This document shows positions 25,517-47,650 of a DNA stretch of 64,000 nucleotides, piece after piece; positions within the stretch are counted from its first letter, which is position 1, and the number at the start of each line of letters is the position of its first letter. The position numbers were made by a program, and so were the translations under genes. The stretch covers positions 248,001 through 312,000 of the forward strand of contig NZ_LT629791.1 of assembly GCF_900105925.1 (NCBI RefSeq), written 5' to 3'. The stretch is from Jiangella alkaliphila. GTDB taxonomy: Bacteria > Actinomycetota > Actinomycetes > Jiangellales > Jiangellaceae. Under the pieces are notes generated by a model. It saw nothing but the letters and a program-made list of their open reading frames with translations, was not told the DNA's origin and did no database searches.

Positions 25517-26466
25517 GCGCGATGCAGACGCGACGGAGCGAGCTGACCGCTCCGCGGACGTCGGCCGTCCGGTCCGTGGACCTGCCCGAGCCGGGGTACG
25601 GCGAGGTGCTGCTACGGCTGCTGGTCAGCGGTGTTTGCGCCAGCGAGGTGGCGGAGTGGACGGCGGGACCGGGCGACGGCGCCGGCGTCTTGGCGCTGGG
25701 GCACGAGCCGGTGGGCGAGGTCGTCGCCACCGGCCCCGACGTCTCGGCGGTGCGGCCGGGCGACGTCGTCACCGGCCGGGTCGACGCGTCGTTCGCCGAC
25801 CACACCATCGCCGACGCCCGCGACCTCGTCGTCGTCCCGCCCGGGCTGGAGCCGGCCGAGGCGCTCGGCGAGCCGCTCGGCTGCGTCGTCGAGGCGCTGC
25901 GCCGGACCCGGCTCGACACCGGCGACCGGGTCGCCGTCGTCGGGACCGGGTTCATGGGGCTGGTGCTGCTGCAGCTGCTCCGGCACGCGGGCACGCGCCA
26001 GGTCGTCGCGATCGACCCGCGGCCGGACGCGCGCGACCAGGCACTGATCCACGGCGCGGACGCCGTGGTGGCGCCGGGCGAGGCGGCGGGGCCCGCGTAC
26101 GCCGACGCCTTCGACGTCGTCGTCGAGGCGTCCGGCACCGCGCCGGGACTCGACCTCGCGACGACGCTGGTGCGGCCGCACGGCGTGCTGTCGATCATGG
26201 GCTACCACCAGGGCCCGCGCACCGTCGACCTGAAGACGTGGAACTTCAAGTCCATCGACGTCGTCAACGCGCACGTCCGCGACCGCGACCGGCTGCGCGA
26301 CAGCGTCCGTCGCGGCCTCGACCTGGTCGCCGCCGGCCGCATCAACGTCGGCGCCCTGATCACCCACCGCTTCGCGCTGGACGACGTCGACGCCGCCTTC
26401 ACCGCCCTGGTCGACAAGGCGCCCGGCTTCGTCAAGGCCGCCATCACCTGGCCCGAGCCAAGTTGA
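25513..26466 (+). CDS. zinc-type medium-chain alcohol/polyol dehydrogenase
   Basis: A 317-residue MDR dehydrogenase. Catalytic zinc ligands are suggested by GVCASE and LGHEPVG, and EPLGCVVEALRR is the family-typical helix. The Rossmann motif GTGFMGL is at about residues 141-147, followed by the NAD-selecting AIDPRPD. The four-Cys structural zinc lobe is missing, which makes the protein shorter than sorbitol or threonine dehydrogenases (about 340-350 residues). The GTG start overlaps the ASRT stop (GTGA), and the stop codon lies inside the left arm of the downstream inverted repeat. Its substrate is unknown. Confidence 0.87.
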   Translation: MSAMQTRRSELTAPRTSAVRSVDLPEPGYGEVLLRLLVSGVCASEVAEWTAGPGDGAGVLALGHEPVGEVVATGPDVSAVRPGDVVTGRVDASFADHTIADARDLVVVPPGLEPAEALGEPLGCVVEALRRTRLDTGDRVAVVGTGFMGLVLLQLLRHAGTRQVVAIDPRPDARDQALIHGADAVVAPGEAAGPAYADAFDVVVEASGTAPGLDLATTLVRPHGVLSIMGYHQGPRTVDLKTWNFKSIDVVNAHVRDRDRLRDSVRRGLDLVAAGRINVGALITHRFALDDVDAAFTALVDKAPGFVKAAITWPEPS

Positions 26467-26533
26467 TCTTGGAGTTGTTCGGCAATCGCAGGACGAATTG
26501 TCCGATAGATGGCCGAACAACTCCAAGATCAAC
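26462..26533. terminator. 72-bp inverted repeat between convergent genes (bidirectional terminator or palindromic element)
   Basis: The arms 26462-26483 and 26512-26533 are perfectly complementary over 22 bp, with a 28-base loop holding a small GGAC/GTCC inner hairpin. It contains the MDR gene stop and lies seven bases from the LysR gene stop, so both transcripts would form the hairpin. No T-run follows, as is usual for actinobacterial terminators. Confidence 0.8.
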
Positions 26534-41274: not shown

Positions 41275-41373
41275 TCGGTTGCTCCCGGTTTGCGGCAAGA
41301 TCGTGAATCCCCCTAGGAAGTTCTGCGGGGAGTGCCGACGCGCGGGGGACCCGCCTGCCACCAGGTTCTTTCC

Positions 41374-41931
41374 ATGGCAGCTGAGTGGGATCATCAGGAG
41401 TTCGCCATCCTGCTCGACCGGGCCCACGAGGGCGACGACGACGCCTTCGGGATCCTCTACGAGAAGACGGCGCCGATGGCCCACCGCGCGGCCCAGCACA
41501 TCGTGCGTGACCGGCACGCCGCCGACGACCTGGTCCAGGAGACGTTCTGCCTCGTGTTGAACGCCGTCCGGGCCGGCCGCGGGCCGCGCTCGTCGTTCCC
41601 CGGCTACGTGCTGTCGACGGTGAAGCGGCTGGCCTACCGGCATTCGACCGCGCGCGGCCGCACCGTCATCGTCCAGGACCCGGCCGCCTGGGACGCGCTT
41701 CTCGGCCGGCCCGGCTCCGACGCCGCGGACGCTGGGCGGGTCGCGGCCGCGCTGGCCAGCCTGCCGGCCCGCTGGCGCCACGTCCTCTGGCTGGTCGACG
41801 TCGAGCACTACTCGCCGTCGGAGCTGGGCTCGCGGATGTCGATGACCCCGAACGCCGTCTCCAGCCTGGCAGCCCGGGCCCGCAAGGCCCTGCGCGCCGC
41901 CTACCTCGAGACGGCCGCCGACGCCGCCTGA
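41374..41931 (+). CDS. ECF-type RNA polymerase sigma factor
   Basis: A 185-residue sigma-70-family protein with region 2 (FGILYEKTAPMAHRAAQHIV, AADDLVQETFCLVLNAV) and region 4 (LPARWRHVLWLVDVEHYSPS, ELGSRMSMTPNAVSSLAARA). No anti-sigma gene is adjacent, which is unusual for ECF factors, although the next gene encodes a surface protein in the other direction. The ATG at 41374 is chosen because region 2 begins about 12 residues later; a GTG/ATG further upstream at 41332 is possible but lacks a ribosome-binding site. Confidence 0.86.
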   Translation: MAAEWDHQEFAILLDRAHEGDDDAFGILYEKTAPMAHRAAQHIVRDRHAADDLVQETFCLVLNAVRAGRGPRSSFPGYVLSTVKRLAYRHSTARGRTVIVQDPAAWDALLGRPGSDAADAGRVAAALASLPARWRHVLWLVDVEHYSPSELGSRMSMTPNAVSSLAARARKALRAAYLETAADAA

Positions 41932-41990
41932 CCCGCACGCCAGGGCCTGGCCGCCCCACATCGTCGCCGGTCAGTGCTCATCCACACCTG

Positions 41991-42074
41991 CTGGTGCTCT
42001 GCCGTCGCATGAGACGGCAGACCTCCATCGCGCGCGATGGTGCTCTGCAGTCGGATGAGACGGCAGAGCACCAG
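41991..42074. repeat. compound palindromic element
   Basis: An 84-bp structure. The outer arms 41991-42006 and 42059-42074 are perfect 16-bp inverted repeats. Each also pairs internally with a partial copy (42013-42020 and 42039-42052) to give two tandem hairpins. The centre 42025-42040 is a perfect 16-bp palindrome (CCATCGCGCGCGATGG). It lies 60 bases after the sigma-factor stop, so it could terminate that transcript or be a REP/MITE-like element. Confidence 0.7.
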
Positions 42075-42098
42075 CGCCGCTGACAGGACACTGAACGT

Positions 42099-42143
42099 GC
42101 GAAGACCCGGCCGCCGCGGCGTGCGCGACGATCGGGCCTTCGC
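42099..42143 (+). terminator. weak hairpin in the sigma/surface-protein spacer
   Basis: Imperfect arms GCGAAGACCCG (42099-42109) and CGGGCCTTCGC (42133-42143) can pair with one mismatch around a 23-base loop. It may assist termination of the rightward transcript. Confidence 0.35.
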
Positions 42144-42153
42144 GTTGACGACG

Positions 42154-42192
42154 CGACCGCGGGGCCGGCTGCTGGTGCCGGCCCCGCGGTCG
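42154..42192 (-). terminator. hairpin terminator of the surface-protein gene
   Basis: Perfect 16-bp stem (42154-42169 with 42177-42192) and a 7-base loop, five bases past the stop of the leftward gene at 42197. Confidence 0.8.
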
Positions 42193-42196
42193 TGTG

Positions 42197-45100
42197 TCAG
42201 CCGGTCAGGCCTCCCGTCCCGGTCCGGCGGCGGGTGACGACCAGGGCCGTCCCGCCGACGATGATCAGCAACGCTCCGGCCAGCGCCAGCAGCACGGACA
42301 GGCCGTTGCCGGTGTCGGCGAGGTCGTCGTCGCCACCGTCACCGCCGCCGCCACCATCGCCGTTGCCGTCGTCGTCACCGTCGTCGCCACCAGGAGGCGG
42401 CGTGCCCGGGGTCTCCGGGGGCGTCGGCGGGTCGAGCGGCGCGCAGGCGTCGGCGTCGAGCTCGTGACCGTTGTGGTCGAGCAGCCCGAGGTTGAGCAGC
42501 CCGCCGTTCTCGCCGGCACCCGGGTCGTCCGGGCACTGGACCGACTCGGCGGTCGCGGTGGCCGGGTCGACCGTGACGGCGACGGTCACCTCGTAGGTGT
42601 GCGTCGTGTCGACGTCGATGGTGACGTCGCCGGTGATGGCGTTCTCCGGCGCGTCCGGCTCCTCACCTTGACCGGTGAACGTGTCCAGGGTCGGCACGTC
42701 GCCGGGCTCGGTGTTCTCGGCCGTGACGTCGACGATGGTGATGCCGGCGCCGTAGTTGAGCTGGTCGCTGAGGACGTAGTCCCCGGCCGCGGCCCCGTCG
42801 TTCTGGACCTCCAGCTCGTAGGTGATCGTGTAGGCGTTCGTGCCGGTCGACGTGGGCCCGGACGCGATCGTCTTATCCAGGTGGATCGACGGCAGGTCGG
42901 CGCAGTCGGTGTCGGTGATCTCGTCGCCGCCCTCGGTGGTGAGGGTGGCGCCGTTGTTCAGACCGCCGTTCTCCCAGTTGTCGCCGGGCTCACCCGCACA
43001 CGCGGCCGCCGTGTTGCCGTCGTCGTCCACCTCGAAGTTCGGCGGGACGTCGGCGACGACCGTGATGGTGTAGACGTGCGGCGCGTAGCCCTCGTCGTTC
43101 ATGCCGGGCAGCGTCACATCCTCGGCGATGAGGGTGTCCTCGAGACCGTCCCAGTCCTCGTTCACGGAGACCCCGTCGGGGAAGTCCGTGACCTCGGCGT
43201 AGTCGACCTCGACGGTGTCGCCGAACAGCAGCTCGTCCTCGAGGTCGTAGGTGGTCTCGCCCGGCAGCAGGTTGTTCACCGTCAGGGTGTAGACGACCTC
43301 CCACTGACCGTCGTTGACGGGCTCGGCGGACACCAGCTCCTTGTCGAGGTCCGGCTCGCCGAGCGAGAGGCAGGCCTCGTCGTCGTCGGTGAGGTCGTTG
43401 TGCTCTATGCCGGTGCTGTTGGCCAGCCCGCCGTTCTCGCCGGAGTCCGGCTCGGGGCAGGTCATCGACTCCTCGGTGAGCGTCTCCTCGTCGAGGGAGA
43501 AGACCACCTGCACCTGGTAGGTGTGCACCCCGCCGGCGGCGAGCGGCACGTCCTCGGCGATGACGTTGACGGGGTCGCCGTCAGCGCCCTGGCCGGTCCA
43601 GGTGTCCAGCGCGGTGACGCCCTCGGGCGTGGTGACCACCTGGGCGTCCTCGACGAGGATCCCCTCGCCGTACCGGAGCTGGTCGCTGATGGTGTAGTCG
43701 CCGTCAGCCGCGCCCGTGTTCGACGCCACCAGGTCGTAGGTGATGGTCCACGTCCCGTCGCCGTTGGCGGTCGGGCCGGCGCTGACCGTCTTCTCGATGT
43801 CGATCGACGGCAGCGGCGCGCAGGCCTGGTCGTCCTCGGTCAGGCCGGACTCGTCGGTCAGCGTCGACGTGTTGTTGAACGCCGTGTCCGACGTCGGGTC
43901 CTCGCCCTCGCCGGGGCAGGCCGTCGGGTCCTCGCCGCCCTCACCGGGCACGAGCTGCAGCGGCGCTTCCGCGATCACCGTCAGCTCGTAGTGGTGCGGC
44001 GCGTACCCGTCGTCGTCGGTGCCCAGCAACGGCACCTGCTCGGCGATGACCAGCTGGTCCTGCCCGTTCCACGGCGGGTCGAACAGCGTGGCCTCGGCCG
44101 GCGACGCGGTGACGTCGGCGGACACGATGGTCACCTGGTCGGTGAAGTGCAGCTCGTCGGCCAGGTCGTAGAGCGTCGCCTGGACGCCCTTGTTGGTCAC
44201 GTCGATGCCGTAGACGATCTCCCACTGGCCGTTGCCGATCGGCGTGGCCGAGATGAGCGTCTTGTCGTGGGTCGGCTGGCCGACCTCACGGCACTCGGTG
44301 TCGGTGTCCGGGTACCCGTTGAACGACGAGTTCGCGTCGTTGTAGAGCCCCGTGCCATCCTCACCGCCGTCGCCGGCCAGCGTGCAGTCCGACGGGTCGG
44401 GCTGGGCCGGCGGGTTGGGCAGGTTCACGGTGAACTGGACGGTGACGGTGTACTCGTGCGACTCCAGCGCGCCGATCGGCTCGTCCTCGACGATCAGCAG
44501 GTCGGTGACGCCGTCGTACTCCGGCCGGGTCGTGATGGTGCCCGGGACGGTGTTCGCCGCGACGACCGAGCCGTCGACGATCTCGATGCCGGTGCCGAAG
44601 CGCAGCGCGTCCTCGAGGTCGTAGTCGGTCGGCACCTCGGACTCGTTGGTGACGGTGAGGCCGTAGGTGATCTCCCAGACGCCGGGCTGGTTCTCCCGGT
44701 CCACCACGTGCGGCTCGGTGACGACGGTCTTGTCGAGCGTGACGATCGGCAGGTCGCCGCACTCGTCGTCGGTGAGGTCCTCGTGGTTGTCGGGGGACAT
44801 CGTGGCGTGGTTGAACAGCCCCGTGGTCGGGTCGCCGGCCTGCTGGCCGTCGGTGCAGGCCAGGTTCTCCGGCGGCGCCGTCACCTCGCCGGTCTCCGGG
44901 TCGGTCGTCAGCGCGACGGTGACCTCGAGCGTGTAGACGTGCTCGCTGCCGTTCTCGACGGTCGACTGCGGCGCGATCGGCACCTCGCCGGTGACGACGT
45001 TGAGATCCGTCGTGCCGTCCCAGTTCGGGTTCAGCAGCCCGTCGGCCTCCGGCGGACCGGACACCACCTGCGTGTCGACCACCTCGATGCCGTCGCCGTA

Positions 45101-47650
45101 CCCGGTCAGGTCGTCGGTGAGCAGGTACGCCCCCGGGATCATCCCGGTGTTCTCGGCGACCAGCTCGTAGACGACCGTCCACGTGCCGTCGTCGTCCGGA
45201 TTCTCCGTCGGTCCGGACACCGTGCGTTTGTCGAACTCGTAGTCGATGTTGGCGTAGCCGAAGTCGATCGTGTGGTCGTTCTCGCCCGGTCCGCCGGTGG
45301 TGATGCCGGCGTACGGGAAGTCGCCGTCCTCGGTGGTCTCCACCAGGCCGTCGGAGTCGTTCCGGTTCGCGTCGACGGAGTTCGGGTCACCGGTGTCGGG
45401 CACCGTCGGATACCAGTTCTCCAGTGGCCCGCCGGGTTCGTAGTCGGCCGGGTTGTCGACGCCGACGACGTAGTCGGTGTGCGTCTGGAGCTGGTAGTCC
45501 TGGTCGTTGGACGAGAAGTAGTACTCGCCGTTCGCGTCCGTCGTCGTGGTGCTGACGAGAGTGCGGTTGCCGTCGGCGTCGACCTCGTACAGGTTGACGG
45601 TCGCGCCCGGCACCGGTTCTTCGTCCGGGTCCTGGATGCCGTCGTTGTCGTTGTCGAACCAGACGTAGTTGCCGATCTCGATCGGCGCCGCCGACGCCAT
45701 CGCCGTCAGCTCGCCCAGGCTGTTGCCCTTGCCGGTCTCGCCGATGTCGTTGGTGCCGACGATGACGGCCGCACCGCGCGGCTCCACGAGCGTGCCGTTG
45801 TCCTGGAAGTACCGGCGGGTGCCGGCCTGGAAGCCGGCCTCGGCGACGTGGATCCCTGTCTCCATGATGCCGTCAGCGCGGCTGGGCACCACCAGCGTCG
45901 CACCGAGGTGCTCAGCGCTGTTCACCCAGGTGTCCATGAAGAACTTGCCAGGCTGACCATTGGGACCGTTCAGCGTCACCTGATTCGTCACCGCACCTGG
46001 CTGGCCGTTGACCACGCCGTTCTGCTCGATCGACCAGGTGCCGTCCCCGTTGGAGCCGGCCTTCAGCAGCTCACCGCCGAGCGACCGGGGGACCACGATC
46101 GTGTCGTCGTCCGGGGCGAGGTAGGCCAGGTGGCCGAAGAGATCGCCACCGAGATCGCGGACGCCTACGATCAGGTCGCCGTGCAGATAGCGCGCGTCGG
46201 CGACGATCGGCACGGAAGAGTACATGACCTGTCCCTGCAGGAACGTCGCCCATTGCGCGGAATTGGTGGTCCACGGCTGGTAGCTCGCGGGGTAGAGGCC
46301 CGCGAACAGGCCACGGTTGTAGTCCAGCGGGAAGTCCAGCACCTCGGTCAGGTTCGTCGGGTCGGCCGGGTCGAACGCGTACACGTAGGCGTGCAGGTCG
46401 GCGCGGTTGCCGGTCGACTCGGCCGTGTTGGTGACCGTCAGGTACATCTCGTTGGTCAACGGGTTCGCCGAGATGCCGTGCGGGCGTAGGTCACTGCCGT
46501 CCGGGAAGTACGCGTCCAACTCGTGCTCGGTCACCCCGAGCACCTGCGTGCCGTCGCGGCTGATCTCGACCTCGACCAGCGACCGGTTGTACAGGTTGAC
46601 CGCGAACAGCGACTCCTGGTCGTTGGAGATCTCCATCGCGCCGAGGCCGGTGCGGCCTACCGTGTCCCACGCCTGGGCGTCCCGCAGCCAGTCGTAGGCC
46701 GGGTTGTCCAGGGCCATGACCGGCCGCAAGCCGTTCGGGTCGCCTGGCAGCGCGCCCGGGTCGGAGTCACTGCCGAGGTCGACGCCGTAGTCCGACAGGT
46801 TCACGAAGAGATCGGCGCTGGCCGTCGGCGAGGCCGGCGACCCGCCGTCCGGCGTGACCCGGTAGACGGCGTCGATCCCGCCCGGGCCGAGACCCGTGTG
46901 CCGCCGGACGTACGCCGAGGCGAACACGGTGCCGACGCCGCCAGGCTCCTCGGCCCGCTGCCACGCGGTGCCGTAGGTGGCGCCGATTTGGCCGAACGGC
47001 ACCTGCATGCTGGTCGGCACCGCGGTCGTGGTGTTCGGGCTCATCGCTTCGTATTCGTGCGCCGCGCCGGCGAACTCGGTGGAGTGGACGCCGTCGTGAC
47101 CGCCGAACCGGAATACCGGCAGGTAGACGTAGGGGTTGTTCTCGACGAACGCACCGGGTGTCTGGAACGAGAAGTCGACCTGGGTCGCGGGGACCGTGTC
47201 GATGAACTGCACGGTGGTGCCGTTGCTGCGCCCGGCCGCCCGGCCGACGACGGAGTCGCGCCACTCGGCCCACTCGGGTGTGTCGGGCACGTTCGCCTCG
47301 ACCCGCCAGGGGCCGGCGTCACTCGTGACCGGCAGCGAGTAGTTGCCGCTCGCGTCCGTGATGGCAGGGCCGGCGACGTTGCCGTCGGCGTCGTAGGCGT
47401 AGACCTCGATGCCCTCGAGCAGGCCCGACGCCTCGAACGTGTCGTACGTGCCGTCGGAGTCGTAGTCCTGCCAGATCGTGCCGGTGATCGGGTCACCGAC
47501 CGCGGCCTGCGCCGGGATCGTCGATGCGCCGGCGGCGCCGAGCACGGAACCCACGACGGCGAGCGATGCGAACACGCTCAGCGCTGACCGGGCCCGTTTC
47601 GGGCGAGCGGGGGCCGGATGGCCGTGGCCTCGTTCGTGGAGCGATCTCAC
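42197..47650 (-). CDS. cell-wall-anchored repeat surface protein with LADTG sortase motif
   Basis: 1,817 residues. The signal peptide (SALSVFASLAVVGSVLGAAG, ending at AQA) is followed by an SdrD-B/Cna-B-like domain (ITGTIWQDYDSDGTYDTFEA, about 35-125) and a roughly 500-residue adhesin/propeller-like region. A second SdrD-B domain (YVWFDNDNDGIQDPDEEPVP, about 660-760) precedes six isopeptide-type repeats of 150-170 residues starting near 802, 972, 1128, 1283, 1433 and 1592, each opening with D/E-K-x-(V/I/L). The C-terminus is LADTG (1777-1781), a hydrophobic helix and RRR, which is a class E-like sortase signal. The GTG start at 47650 follows GGAGG. No sortase gene is in the window. Confidence 0.88.
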   Translation of the reverse strand: MRSLHERGHGHPAPARPKRARSALSVFASLAVVGSVLGAAGASTIPAQAAVGDPITGTIWQDYDSDGTYDTFEASGLLEGIEVYAYDADGNVAGPAITDASGNYSLPVTSDAGPWRVEANVPDTPEWAEWRDSVVGRAAGRSNGTTVQFIDTVPATQVDFSFQTPGAFVENNPYVYLPVFRFGGHDGVHSTEFAGAAHEYEAMSPNTTTAVPTSMQVPFGQIGATYGTAWQRAEEPGGVGTVFASAYVRRHTGLGPGGIDAVYRVTPDGGSPASPTASADLFVNLSDYGVDLGSDSDPGALPGDPNGLRPVMALDNPAYDWLRDAQAWDTVGRTGLGAMEISNDQESLFAVNLYNRSLVEVEISRDGTQVLGVTEHELDAYFPDGSDLRPHGISANPLTNEMYLTVTNTAESTGNRADLHAYVYAFDPADPTNLTEVLDFPLDYNRGLFAGLYPASYQPWTTNSAQWATFLQGQVMYSSVPIVADARYLHGDLIVGVRDLGGDLFGHLAYLAPDDDTIVVPRSLGGELLKAGSNGDGTWSIEQNGVVNGQPGAVTNQVTLNGPNGQPGKFFMDTWVNSAEHLGATLVVPSRADGIMETGIHVAEAGFQAGTRRYFQDNGTLVEPRGAAVIVGTNDIGETGKGNSLGELTAMASAAPIEIGNYVWFDNDNDGIQDPDEEPVPGATVNLYEVDADGNRTLVSTTTTDANGEYYFSSNDQDYQLQTHTDYVVGVDNPADYEPGGPLENWYPTVPDTGDPNSVDANRNDSDGLVETTEDGDFPYAGITTGGPGENDHTIDFGYANIDYEFDKRTVSGPTENPDDDGTWTVVYELVAENTGMIPGAYLLTDDLTGYGDGIEVVDTQVVSGPPEADGLLNPNWDGTTDLNVVTGEVPIAPQSTVENGSEHVYTLEVTVALTTDPETGEVTAPPENLACTDGQQAGDPTTGLFNHATMSPDNHEDLTDDECGDLPIVTLDKTVVTEPHVVDRENQPGVWEITYGLTVTNESEVPTDYDLEDALRFGTGIEIVDGSVVAANTVPGTITTRPEYDGVTDLLIVEDEPIGALESHEYTVTVQFTVNLPNPPAQPDPSDCTLAGDGGEDGTGLYNDANSSFNGYPDTDTECREVGQPTHDKTLISATPIGNGQWEIVYGIDVTNKGVQATLYDLADELHFTDQVTIVSADVTASPAEATLFDPPWNGQDQLVIAEQVPLLGTDDDGYAPHHYELTVIAEAPLQLVPGEGGEDPTACPGEGEDPTSDTAFNNTSTLTDESGLTEDDQACAPLPSIDIEKTVSAGPTANGDGTWTITYDLVASNTGAADGDYTISDQLRYGEGILVEDAQVVTTPEGVTALDTWTGQGADGDPVNVIAEDVPLAAGGVHTYQVQVVFSLDEETLTEESMTCPEPDSGENGGLANSTGIEHNDLTDDDEACLSLGEPDLDKELVSAEPVNDGQWEVVYTLTVNNLLPGETTYDLEDELLFGDTVEVDYAEVTDFPDGVSVNEDWDGLEDTLIAEDVTLPGMNDEGYAPHVYTITVVADVPPNFEVDDDGNTAAACAGEPGDNWENGGLNNGATLTTEGGDEITDTDCADLPSIHLDKTIASGPTSTGTNAYTITYELEVQNDGAAAGDYVLSDQLNYGAGITIVDVTAENTEPGDVPTLDTFTGQGEEPDAPENAITGDVTIDVDTTHTYEVTVAVTVDPATATAESVQCPDDPGAGENGGLLNLGLLDHNGHELDADACAPLDPPTPPETPGTPPPGGDDGDDDGNGDGGGGGDGGDDDLADTGNGLSVLLALAGALLIIVGGTALVVTRRRTGTGGLTG

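What the first reader, a model, noticed from the sequence alone, without database searches (positions are those of the whole stretch)
41991..42074. Nested double-hairpin palindromic element
Two tandem near-identical hairpins can also refold into one long structure because the outermost arms are perfect 16-bp complements, and the centre is itself a 16-bp perfect palindrome. Alternative foldings of this type are typical of REP/BIME or MITE elements.
Basis: seen in the sequence. Interest (0 to 1): 0.5.

Follow-up and report, generated by a model that had tools for sequence, protein, structure and literature searches.

The report
Dispersed hairpin repeat at gene ends
The element is one copy of a repeated DNA hairpin scattered through genomes of the soil bacterium Jiangella, mostly just after genes and sometimes inside protein-coding genes; it behaves like known palindromic repeats, but the enzyme family known to move those was not found.

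Summary
In detail: two near-identical 36-nt hairpins (41992-42027, 42038-42073) joined by a palindromic 10-nt linker, with perfect outer arms and centre. It is not unique: 14 loci with 33 such units in this genome, matches in 8 of 12 Jiangella genomes, in 0 of 28 genomes outside the genus. Intergenic copies lie mainly at gene 3' ends (49 of 53 classified). Four different genes carry a copy in frame; for UbiA, relatives and outgroups without it suggest a gain. At two sites read in relatives, other species hold unrelated palindromic repeats. Elements at the same site in two species are no more alike than elements at different sites. The REP-transposase domain (PF01797) was found in none of 12 genomes, and I saw no GTAG/CGTC foot tag (by eye): it works like a REP/BIME but is not filed as one. 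Most likely: a mobile or formerly mobile palindromic repeat whose transcript hairpin ends or protects mRNAs of neighbouring genes. Mobility and function are inferred, not shown.

The parts
41992..42027 (+). hairpin unit 1 (15-nt arms, 6-nt loop GCATGA)
42028..42037 (.). palindromic linker TCGCGCGCGA; at 19 junctions of the own genome TCGCGCGCGA occurs 13 times, TCGCGCGA 5 times, ACGCGCGA once
42038..42073 (+). hairpin unit 2 (loop GGATGA)
41991..42006 (+). outer left arm, perfect complement of 42059-42074
42059..42074 (+). outer right arm
42025..42040 (.). central 16-nt perfect palindrome (end of unit 1, linker, start of unit 2)
41332..41931 (+). upstream gene, sigma-70 family factor (regions 2 and 4); ends 60 nt before the first unit
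42197..47650 (-). convergent gene, 1817-aa protein with SdrD-B domains; its end lies 123 nt after the last unit
42151..42195 (.). separate GC-rich hairpin beside the stop codon of the convergent gene, seen by eye in several relatives too; probably that gene's own terminator, not part of the repeat

Best explanation
The element is a two-unit copy of a dispersed palindromic repeat of Jiangella (here called the TCTGCC family). SHOWN: it is multi-copy, found only in this genus among the genomes searched, organised as arrays of hairpins (1-4 per locus in the own genome; up to 6 per locus and 5 in a row in relatives), enriched at gene 3' ends, present at some sites in some species and absent there in others, and open in frame inside four genes. 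INFERRED: copies spread as a short hairpin and grow in place by tandem duplication of the 44/46-nt unit; they persist mainly downstream of stop codons because insertion there does little harm and because the hairpin, nearly the same on both strands, can end or protect transcripts from both sides. Here the sigma-factor gene is the likelier user, since the other gene has its own hairpin. The mover is unknown; no PF01797 (RAYT/IS200-type) protein was found in the genome.
For: Copy number: 14 loci, 33 units in the own genome (one search scored 40 of 51 candidates); 8 of 12 genus genomes with model matches at E<=0.01 (150 candidates scored per genome); 0 of 28 genomes outside the genus. Position: 63 loci = 9 intragenic, 1 unclassified, 53 intergenic (21 convergent, 28 tandem, 4 divergent), against 5, 42 and 21 of 68 other gaps of at least 100 nt in the same loci; Fisher p 3e-5 for convergent, 0.0015 for divergent (orthologous loci counted separately). 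Gain: UbiA insert in 6 genomes, neither this nor other extra sequence in 3 genus genomes and 3 outgroups, other extra sequence in 3; kinase insert in the own genome, absent in 3 of 3 other readable orthologues. Turnover: same-site elements of two species are no more alike than different-site ones (0.825 against 0.825-0.826); linkers differ between genomes; unrelated palindromes occupy the same site. G004 and G010 have no match while their sister G009 has 52. Outer arms pair better than within-unit arms in 31 of 42 arrays, equally in 6, worse in 5.
Against: No insertion junction or target duplication could be drawn; the closest genome is about 90% identical in six gene segments. 7 of 14 own loci sit at a site shared with another species, which also fits old, inherited functional elements. 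That elements are more alike within a genome than at orthologous sites holds in 33 of 43 pairs but only 19 of 28 when both flanks must match (p 0.09) and 12 of 18 without UbiA (p 0.24); fast drift under a shared constraint would also make same-site and different-site pairs equally alike. The six UbiA carriers are not one clade in the tree, so losses or several gains are needed. No U-tract follows the stem and the terminator scan found 0 sites. In the window 2 of 4 convergent gaps of at least 40 nt fold no better than shuffles, so a strong hairpin is not needed there. Most of the outer-arm advantage is position-specific consensus (permutation null 13.0 of 15, observed 13.3; p 0.014 overall and in the own genome, 0.15 in the other 30 arrays); within-unit pairs do not covary. 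The script's gene calls are inconsistent at some orthologous sites. No transcript data.
Confidence: 0.57

Rival explanations
1. Plain bidirectional terminators: hairpins made in place and kept alike by selection for termination, with no mobility.
For: 3'-end bias; half of the own loci are at shared sites (7 of 14); two-way symmetry suits convergent genes.
Against: A 36-nt sequence shared by 14 loci is not needed for termination (inference); the in-frame copies inside four genes cannot be end-of-gene terminators; no U-tract; no match in two species whose sister has many.
Confidence: 0.19
2. Classical REP/BIME moved by a RAYT (TnpA-REP).
For: Palindromic, arrayed, 3'-end biased; intragenic copies are known for REPs (PMC3733652, passages).
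Against: PF01797 in 0 of 12 genus genomes; no GTAG/CGTC foot tag seen; 15-pair stems against the 5-13 bp (GTAG) and 8-9 bp (CGTC) in the table of PMC3733652.
Confidence: 0.07
3. MITE of an insertion sequence, mobilised in trans through the outer inverted repeats.
For: Outer arms are the best-paired arms; a second palindromic family has a nearly constant length of 72 nt with well-conserved ends.
Against: No target duplication seen; no insertion sequence with these ends was searched for; the tandem inner structure would be unusual for a MITE (recalled).
Confidence: 0.1
4. Binding-site array for a chromosomal protein (nucleoid protein, gyrase, SMC-type), with specificity changing between species.
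For: CTGC/GCAG and TC/GA positions are invariant in 31 distinct units of the own genome; lineage-wide replacement of families would fit a changed reader.
Against: 3'-end bias and in-frame copies need no such role; no candidate protein was tested.
Confidence: 0.07

Closest known systems
REP / BIME / REPIN repeats (PMC3116915 and PMC3733652: passages; PMC2817692: search listing only)
   Same: Short dispersed palindromes, arrays, two alternative foldings (separate hairpins or one long one), preference for gaps between convergent and tandem genes, some intragenic copies.
   Different: No RAYT domain found in the genus, no GTAG/CGTC foot tag seen, longer stems (15 pairs), units head-to-tail with a palindromic CG linker instead of two inverted REPs.
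Rickettsia palindromic elements (RPE; passages in PMC2635572 and PMC3733652, original report recalled)
   Same: Palindromic repeat lying in frame in unrelated protein genes.
   Different: Sequence kinship not tested; here most fetched copies (53 of 63 loci classified as intergenic) are outside genes and often in arrays.
I-shaped (U-tract-less) terminators of GC-rich bacteria (PMC8269248, passages)
   Same: Strong GC-rich stem after the stop codon without a U-tract.
   Different: Not described in those passages as a shared repeat family; the in-frame copies here cannot be end-of-gene terminators.
Prokaryotic MITEs (PMC10969869, start of abstract in a search listing only)
   Same: Small dispersed elements with inverted-repeat ends (general knowledge).
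   Different: Parent element and target duplication not shown here.

Membership tests
REP / BIME | dispersed, multi-copy, palindromic | tested here: met
   14 loci, 33 units
REP / BIME | extragenic, 3'-end bias | tested here: met
   49 of 53 classified intergenic loci are next to at least one gene 3' end by the script's gene calls; 9 of 63 loci intragenic
REP / BIME | unpaired GTAG or CGTC tag at one end of the stem | tested here: not met
   flanks of 14 own loci read by eye: no shared tag; common foot CGCTGG...CCAGCG. The letters CGTC occur beside the loop, but inside the paired arm, and once by the foot (L041)
REP / BIME | RAYT (PF01797) in the genome | tested here: not met
   0 of 12 genus genomes; found in 5 of 14 controls
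RPE-like coding palindromes | in-frame copies in several unrelated genes | tested here: met
   UbiA, protein kinase, MFS transporter, hydrolase
RPE | sequence kinship with Rickettsia elements | not tested
   not searched
MITE | target-site duplication and parent insertion sequence | tested here: inconclusive
   relatives too diverged for exact junctions; parent not searched
intrinsic terminator | stem followed by a U-tract | tested here: not met
   0 sites in 41800-42400
intrinsic terminator | transcript ends at the element | not testable with these tools
   no RNA data

The most novel reading that the evidence does not exclude
Jiangella genomes hold 'hairpin slots' after stop codons, and in a few protein linkers, in which unrelated families of palindromic repeats (TCTGCC, GTTGATCTTGGAGTT, CACCTGATCGTTT, TTTTGCAATGAGCACC and others) replace one another lineage by lineage. 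They would be moved by a machinery other than the known RAYT system and kept because a two-way 3'-end hairpin is useful between genes, above all convergent ones.
Probability: 0.25. Interest if true: 0.72.

Novelty: new variant of a known kind. Interest (0 to 1): 0.5.

Why it matters
In the passages I saw, REP-type repeats are described from Proteobacteria and several other phyla, not Actinobacteria (PMC3733652), and their spread is linked to RAYT transposases. A genus with several palindromic families at gene ends, in-frame copies in proteins, and no RAYT domain found points either to an unknown mover or to repeated recruitment of hairpins as transcript ends. Both can be tested by RNA 3'-end mapping and by comparing close strains.

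Tried and rejected
Chance palindrome: rejected. Rfam RNA: on three loci only two microRNA matches far below gathering score; at gathering score, on 20 loci, only glycine riboswitches in the flanks of five. tRNA/tmRNA: none in 14 own loci. RAYT: none. Within-unit covariation as proof of RNA selection: not found (0.060 against 0.052 shuffled, 116 of 500 shuffles at least as high). L044 as a clean empty/filled site: six relatives have only 37-52 nt between the flanks, but the own insert of about 340 nt also holds a piece shared with the gene end beside locus L032, so it is not clean (G002, G006 and G001 have 152-842 nt there, G008 and G003 were not resolved). Literature: 'Jiangella' + 'palindromic' gave 2 papers; in the J. 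gansuensis genome paper, searched for the words 'palindromic' and 'repeat', they concern CRISPR; no paper holds 'GTTGATCTTGGAG'; the listings (most show only the top 8-12 of more papers) hold no title about such repeats in Jiangella. I found none in print within these searches.

Rows dropped or weak: two chance matches (L042 5485245, L044 7606836) were left out from then on, and a 35-nt first unit of L034 was added. In one search G009 and G001 were read in a wrong frame and G005 (contig end) was not read: 4 of 7 matched kinases used; five genomes had no match at 1e-60. In one search, 10 sites tried, 7 used (G006 mis-joined; G002, G003 one flank missing). In one search, 11 relatives: G011, G005, G003 lacked the left flank; G006 had 753 nt of which 700 were printed and looked coding. 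In one search, 16 of 47 'orthologous' pairs rest on one matching flank; one search repeats the test without them and is weaker. Gene orientation at orthologous sites was called differently in places (L039 and L107 divergent, L077, L084 and L100 tandem; L071 convergent, L040, L089 and L097 tandem). Searches list only part of their matches; the 49 relative loci are listed ones, not all (G007: 1 locus fetched of 6 matches).

Full report
What is there. The window lies in a 7.7-Mb single-contig genome of the genus Jiangella by its relatives: the best named matches of the neighbouring gene are Jiangella species, and relative G009 is probably J. muralis DSM 45357, because its contig length 330568 equals that of NZ_KQ434756.1. 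The finding is exact: two 36-nt units, each 15-nt arm, 6-nt loop, 15-nt arm, joined by TCGCGCGCGA; perfect outer arms; perfect central palindrome. The RNA folds far better than shuffles.

It is a repeat family. A search of the own genome with the 96-nt stretch finds 14 loci with strong matches (40 of 51 candidates scored). Parsing gives 33 units in arrays of one to four with linkers of 8 or 10 nt, so the period is 44 or 46. Units within an array can be identical or nearly so (L037, L042), which points to local tandem duplication. A covariance model of the unit matches 8 of 12 genus genomes at E<=0.01 (150 candidates scored per genome): G000 64, G002 84, G009 52, G011 37, G001 18, G008 18, G007 6, G005 2 matches, both strands counted; G003, G004, G006 and G010 none. 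A search of 40 genomes with an 85-nt consensus found the family in 7, all among the 12 of this genus and none in the other 28.

Where the copies sit. I fetched the 14 own loci and 49 listed loci of relatives (146 units in the 63 loci) and called genes with a codon-usage script trained on the window. Nine of the 63 loci are inside genes (below) and one (L102) could not be classified. The other 53 are 21 convergent, 28 tandem and 4 divergent; other gaps of at least 100 nt in the same loci are 5, 42 and 21 of 68. Orthologous loci are counted separately and the gene calls disagree at some orthologous sites, so the p-values are optimistic; for the own genome alone the counts are 6, 4 and 2 of 12 (p 0.001 for convergent against the same background). 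The finding lies between a sigma-factor gene and a convergent gene with SdrD-B domains. The latter has its own GC-rich hairpin beside its stop, seen by eye in several relatives.

Copies inside genes. Own locus L035 lies in frame in a UbiA-family gene (PF01040, E 1.3e-20). Of 15 orthologues aligned, six have this element (own, G009, G001, G008, G011, G002, the last cut by a contig end); G003, G004 and G006 have other extra sequence there, by eye another palindrome; G005, G007, G010 and three outgroups have neither. The frame is open through the element in all six although insert lengths differ. Own locus L038 is in frame in the proline-rich linker of a protein kinase (PF00069) before its C-terminal hydrophobic segment; G008, G010 and G004 lack it. 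An MFS transporter of G011 (L099) and a hydrolase of G009 (L090) carry further copies; for these two I did not look for uninterrupted orthologues. The peptides resemble WRSAVxxDGRxP and ALPSxxTAEL, two frames of the unit that both occur in the UbiA copies.

Evolution. Seven of 14 own loci share their site (both flanks matching within about 2.2 kb) with at least one other species. Elements at the same site in two species are no more alike (mean arm identity 0.825) than elements at different sites of those species (0.825-0.826). Within-genome identity is higher (0.840-0.845): in 33 of 43 pairs over all pairs, but in 19 of 28 (p 0.09) when both flanks must match and 12 of 18 (p 0.24) without UbiA, so homogenisation within genomes is suggested, not established. 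Linkers differ between genomes, for example ATCGCGCGAT-type in G000, G002, G008 and most of G009, and mostly other forms in G001 and G011. In a tree of six gene segments G009 groups with G004 and G010 (local support 1.00 and 0.996; some deeper nodes as low as 0.20), although G009 has many copies and the other two none. At the window's own site, by eye, G001, G009 and G011 have this family, G005 and G010 a CACCTGATC palindrome array, G009 both, G004 a TTTTGCAATGAGCACC palindrome, G008 other unassigned repeats (7 usable of 10 sites); J. muralis and J. ureilytica have the family and J. anatolica the CACCTGATC type (these named genomes may be among the G genomes). At the L042 site 7 of 11 relatives could be read; none shows this family and all 7 show some other palindrome by eye. 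Two of the other families are dispersed too: the arm GTTGATCTTGGAGTT (up to 1 mismatch) has 55 forward and 52 reverse matches in the own genome, 104 and 94 in G007, 0 and 1 in G004, 1 and 0 in G010, and the reversed control has none in any; GTCACCTGATCGTTT has 33 and 52 in G009 and none in G002, G004, G008 and G011. The TTTTGCAATGAGCACC type was seen at two sites of G004 only.

Arms. In 42 contiguous arrays of two or more units the outermost arms pair in 13.3 of 15 positions, the arms of one unit in 12.1 and adjacent arms in 11.2; outer exceeds within-unit in 31, equals it in 6 and falls short in 5 (sign test 1.3e-5). Fourteen single units pair in 14.0. Shuffling partners within genomes leaves most of this (null 13.0), so only a small part is covariation (p 0.014 overall and in the own genome, 0.15 elsewhere); within-unit pairs show none. 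A cautious reading is that the outer pair is the original hairpin and inner units are later additions.

Mechanism. I favour a mobile or formerly mobile palindromic repeat that survives at 3' ends and in protein linkers and there acts as a two-way transcript end or stabiliser. Shown: repetition, species-specific presence at given sites, 3'-end bias, in-frame copies, unrelated palindromes at shared sites. Inferred: transposition, the RNA role, the use by the sigma-factor gene. Against: no U-tract, though S. clavuligerus has 3' ends with strong stems and no U-tract (PMC8269248, passages); and 2 of 4 convergent gaps of the window fold no better than shuffles.

Comparison. REPs share the preference for convergent and tandem gaps and may be intragenic (PMC3733652, passages); REPINs share the two-way folding (PMC3116915, passages). 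Two defining features that I could check, a RAYT domain and a GTAG/CGTC foot tag, are not met (by eye). The phyla named in the passage of PMC3733652 do not include Actinobacteria. So it works like a REP/BIME and is not filed as one. The in-frame copies resemble Rickettsia palindromic elements (recalled; passages). Within the literature searches made I found no description of these Jiangella repeats.

Noticed in passing
window 26462-26533: Copy of a second palindromic family (72 nt, GTTGATCTTGGAGTT...AACTCCAAGATCAAC) between convergent genes; by the script's gene call the TGA stop of the upstream gene lies inside its first arm. The arm has 55 forward and 52 reverse matches in the genome.
   Followed up: partly
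L183-L202 (20 own copies of the second family, chosen from those listed with both arms exact): 19 of 20 are 72 nt and one 73 nt; 10 lie between convergent, 9 between tandem and 1 between divergent genes by the script; many are 12-46 nt from a stop codon and in 4 a stop codon overlaps the element.
   Followed up: partly
UbiA genes of G003, G004, G006 (L121, L127, L122): A different insert with a shared core (CGAGCGAGGAACGAGC or its complement, partly changed in G003) enclosed by complementary arms that differ between the three genomes; a conserved centre with variable paired arms is unusual (by eye; exact core in L122, L127, L136, L151, L152).
   Followed up: no
L110 (G002 C418:1-3300) and L107 (G002 C425:32900-38300): Higher-order tandem repeats of hairpin blocks with periods of 185 and 178 nt.
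   Followed up: no
L039 and orthologues L077, L084, L100, L107: A glycine riboswitch lies on the flank of the array in five genomes (about 750 nt away in L039), in front of what looks by eye like a glycine dehydrogenase gene.
   Followed up: no
L044 intergenic stretch: An insert of about 340 nt, absent in six relatives, contains the element plus a piece shared with the gene end beside locus L032, as if an element had moved together with flanking DNA.
   Followed up: partly
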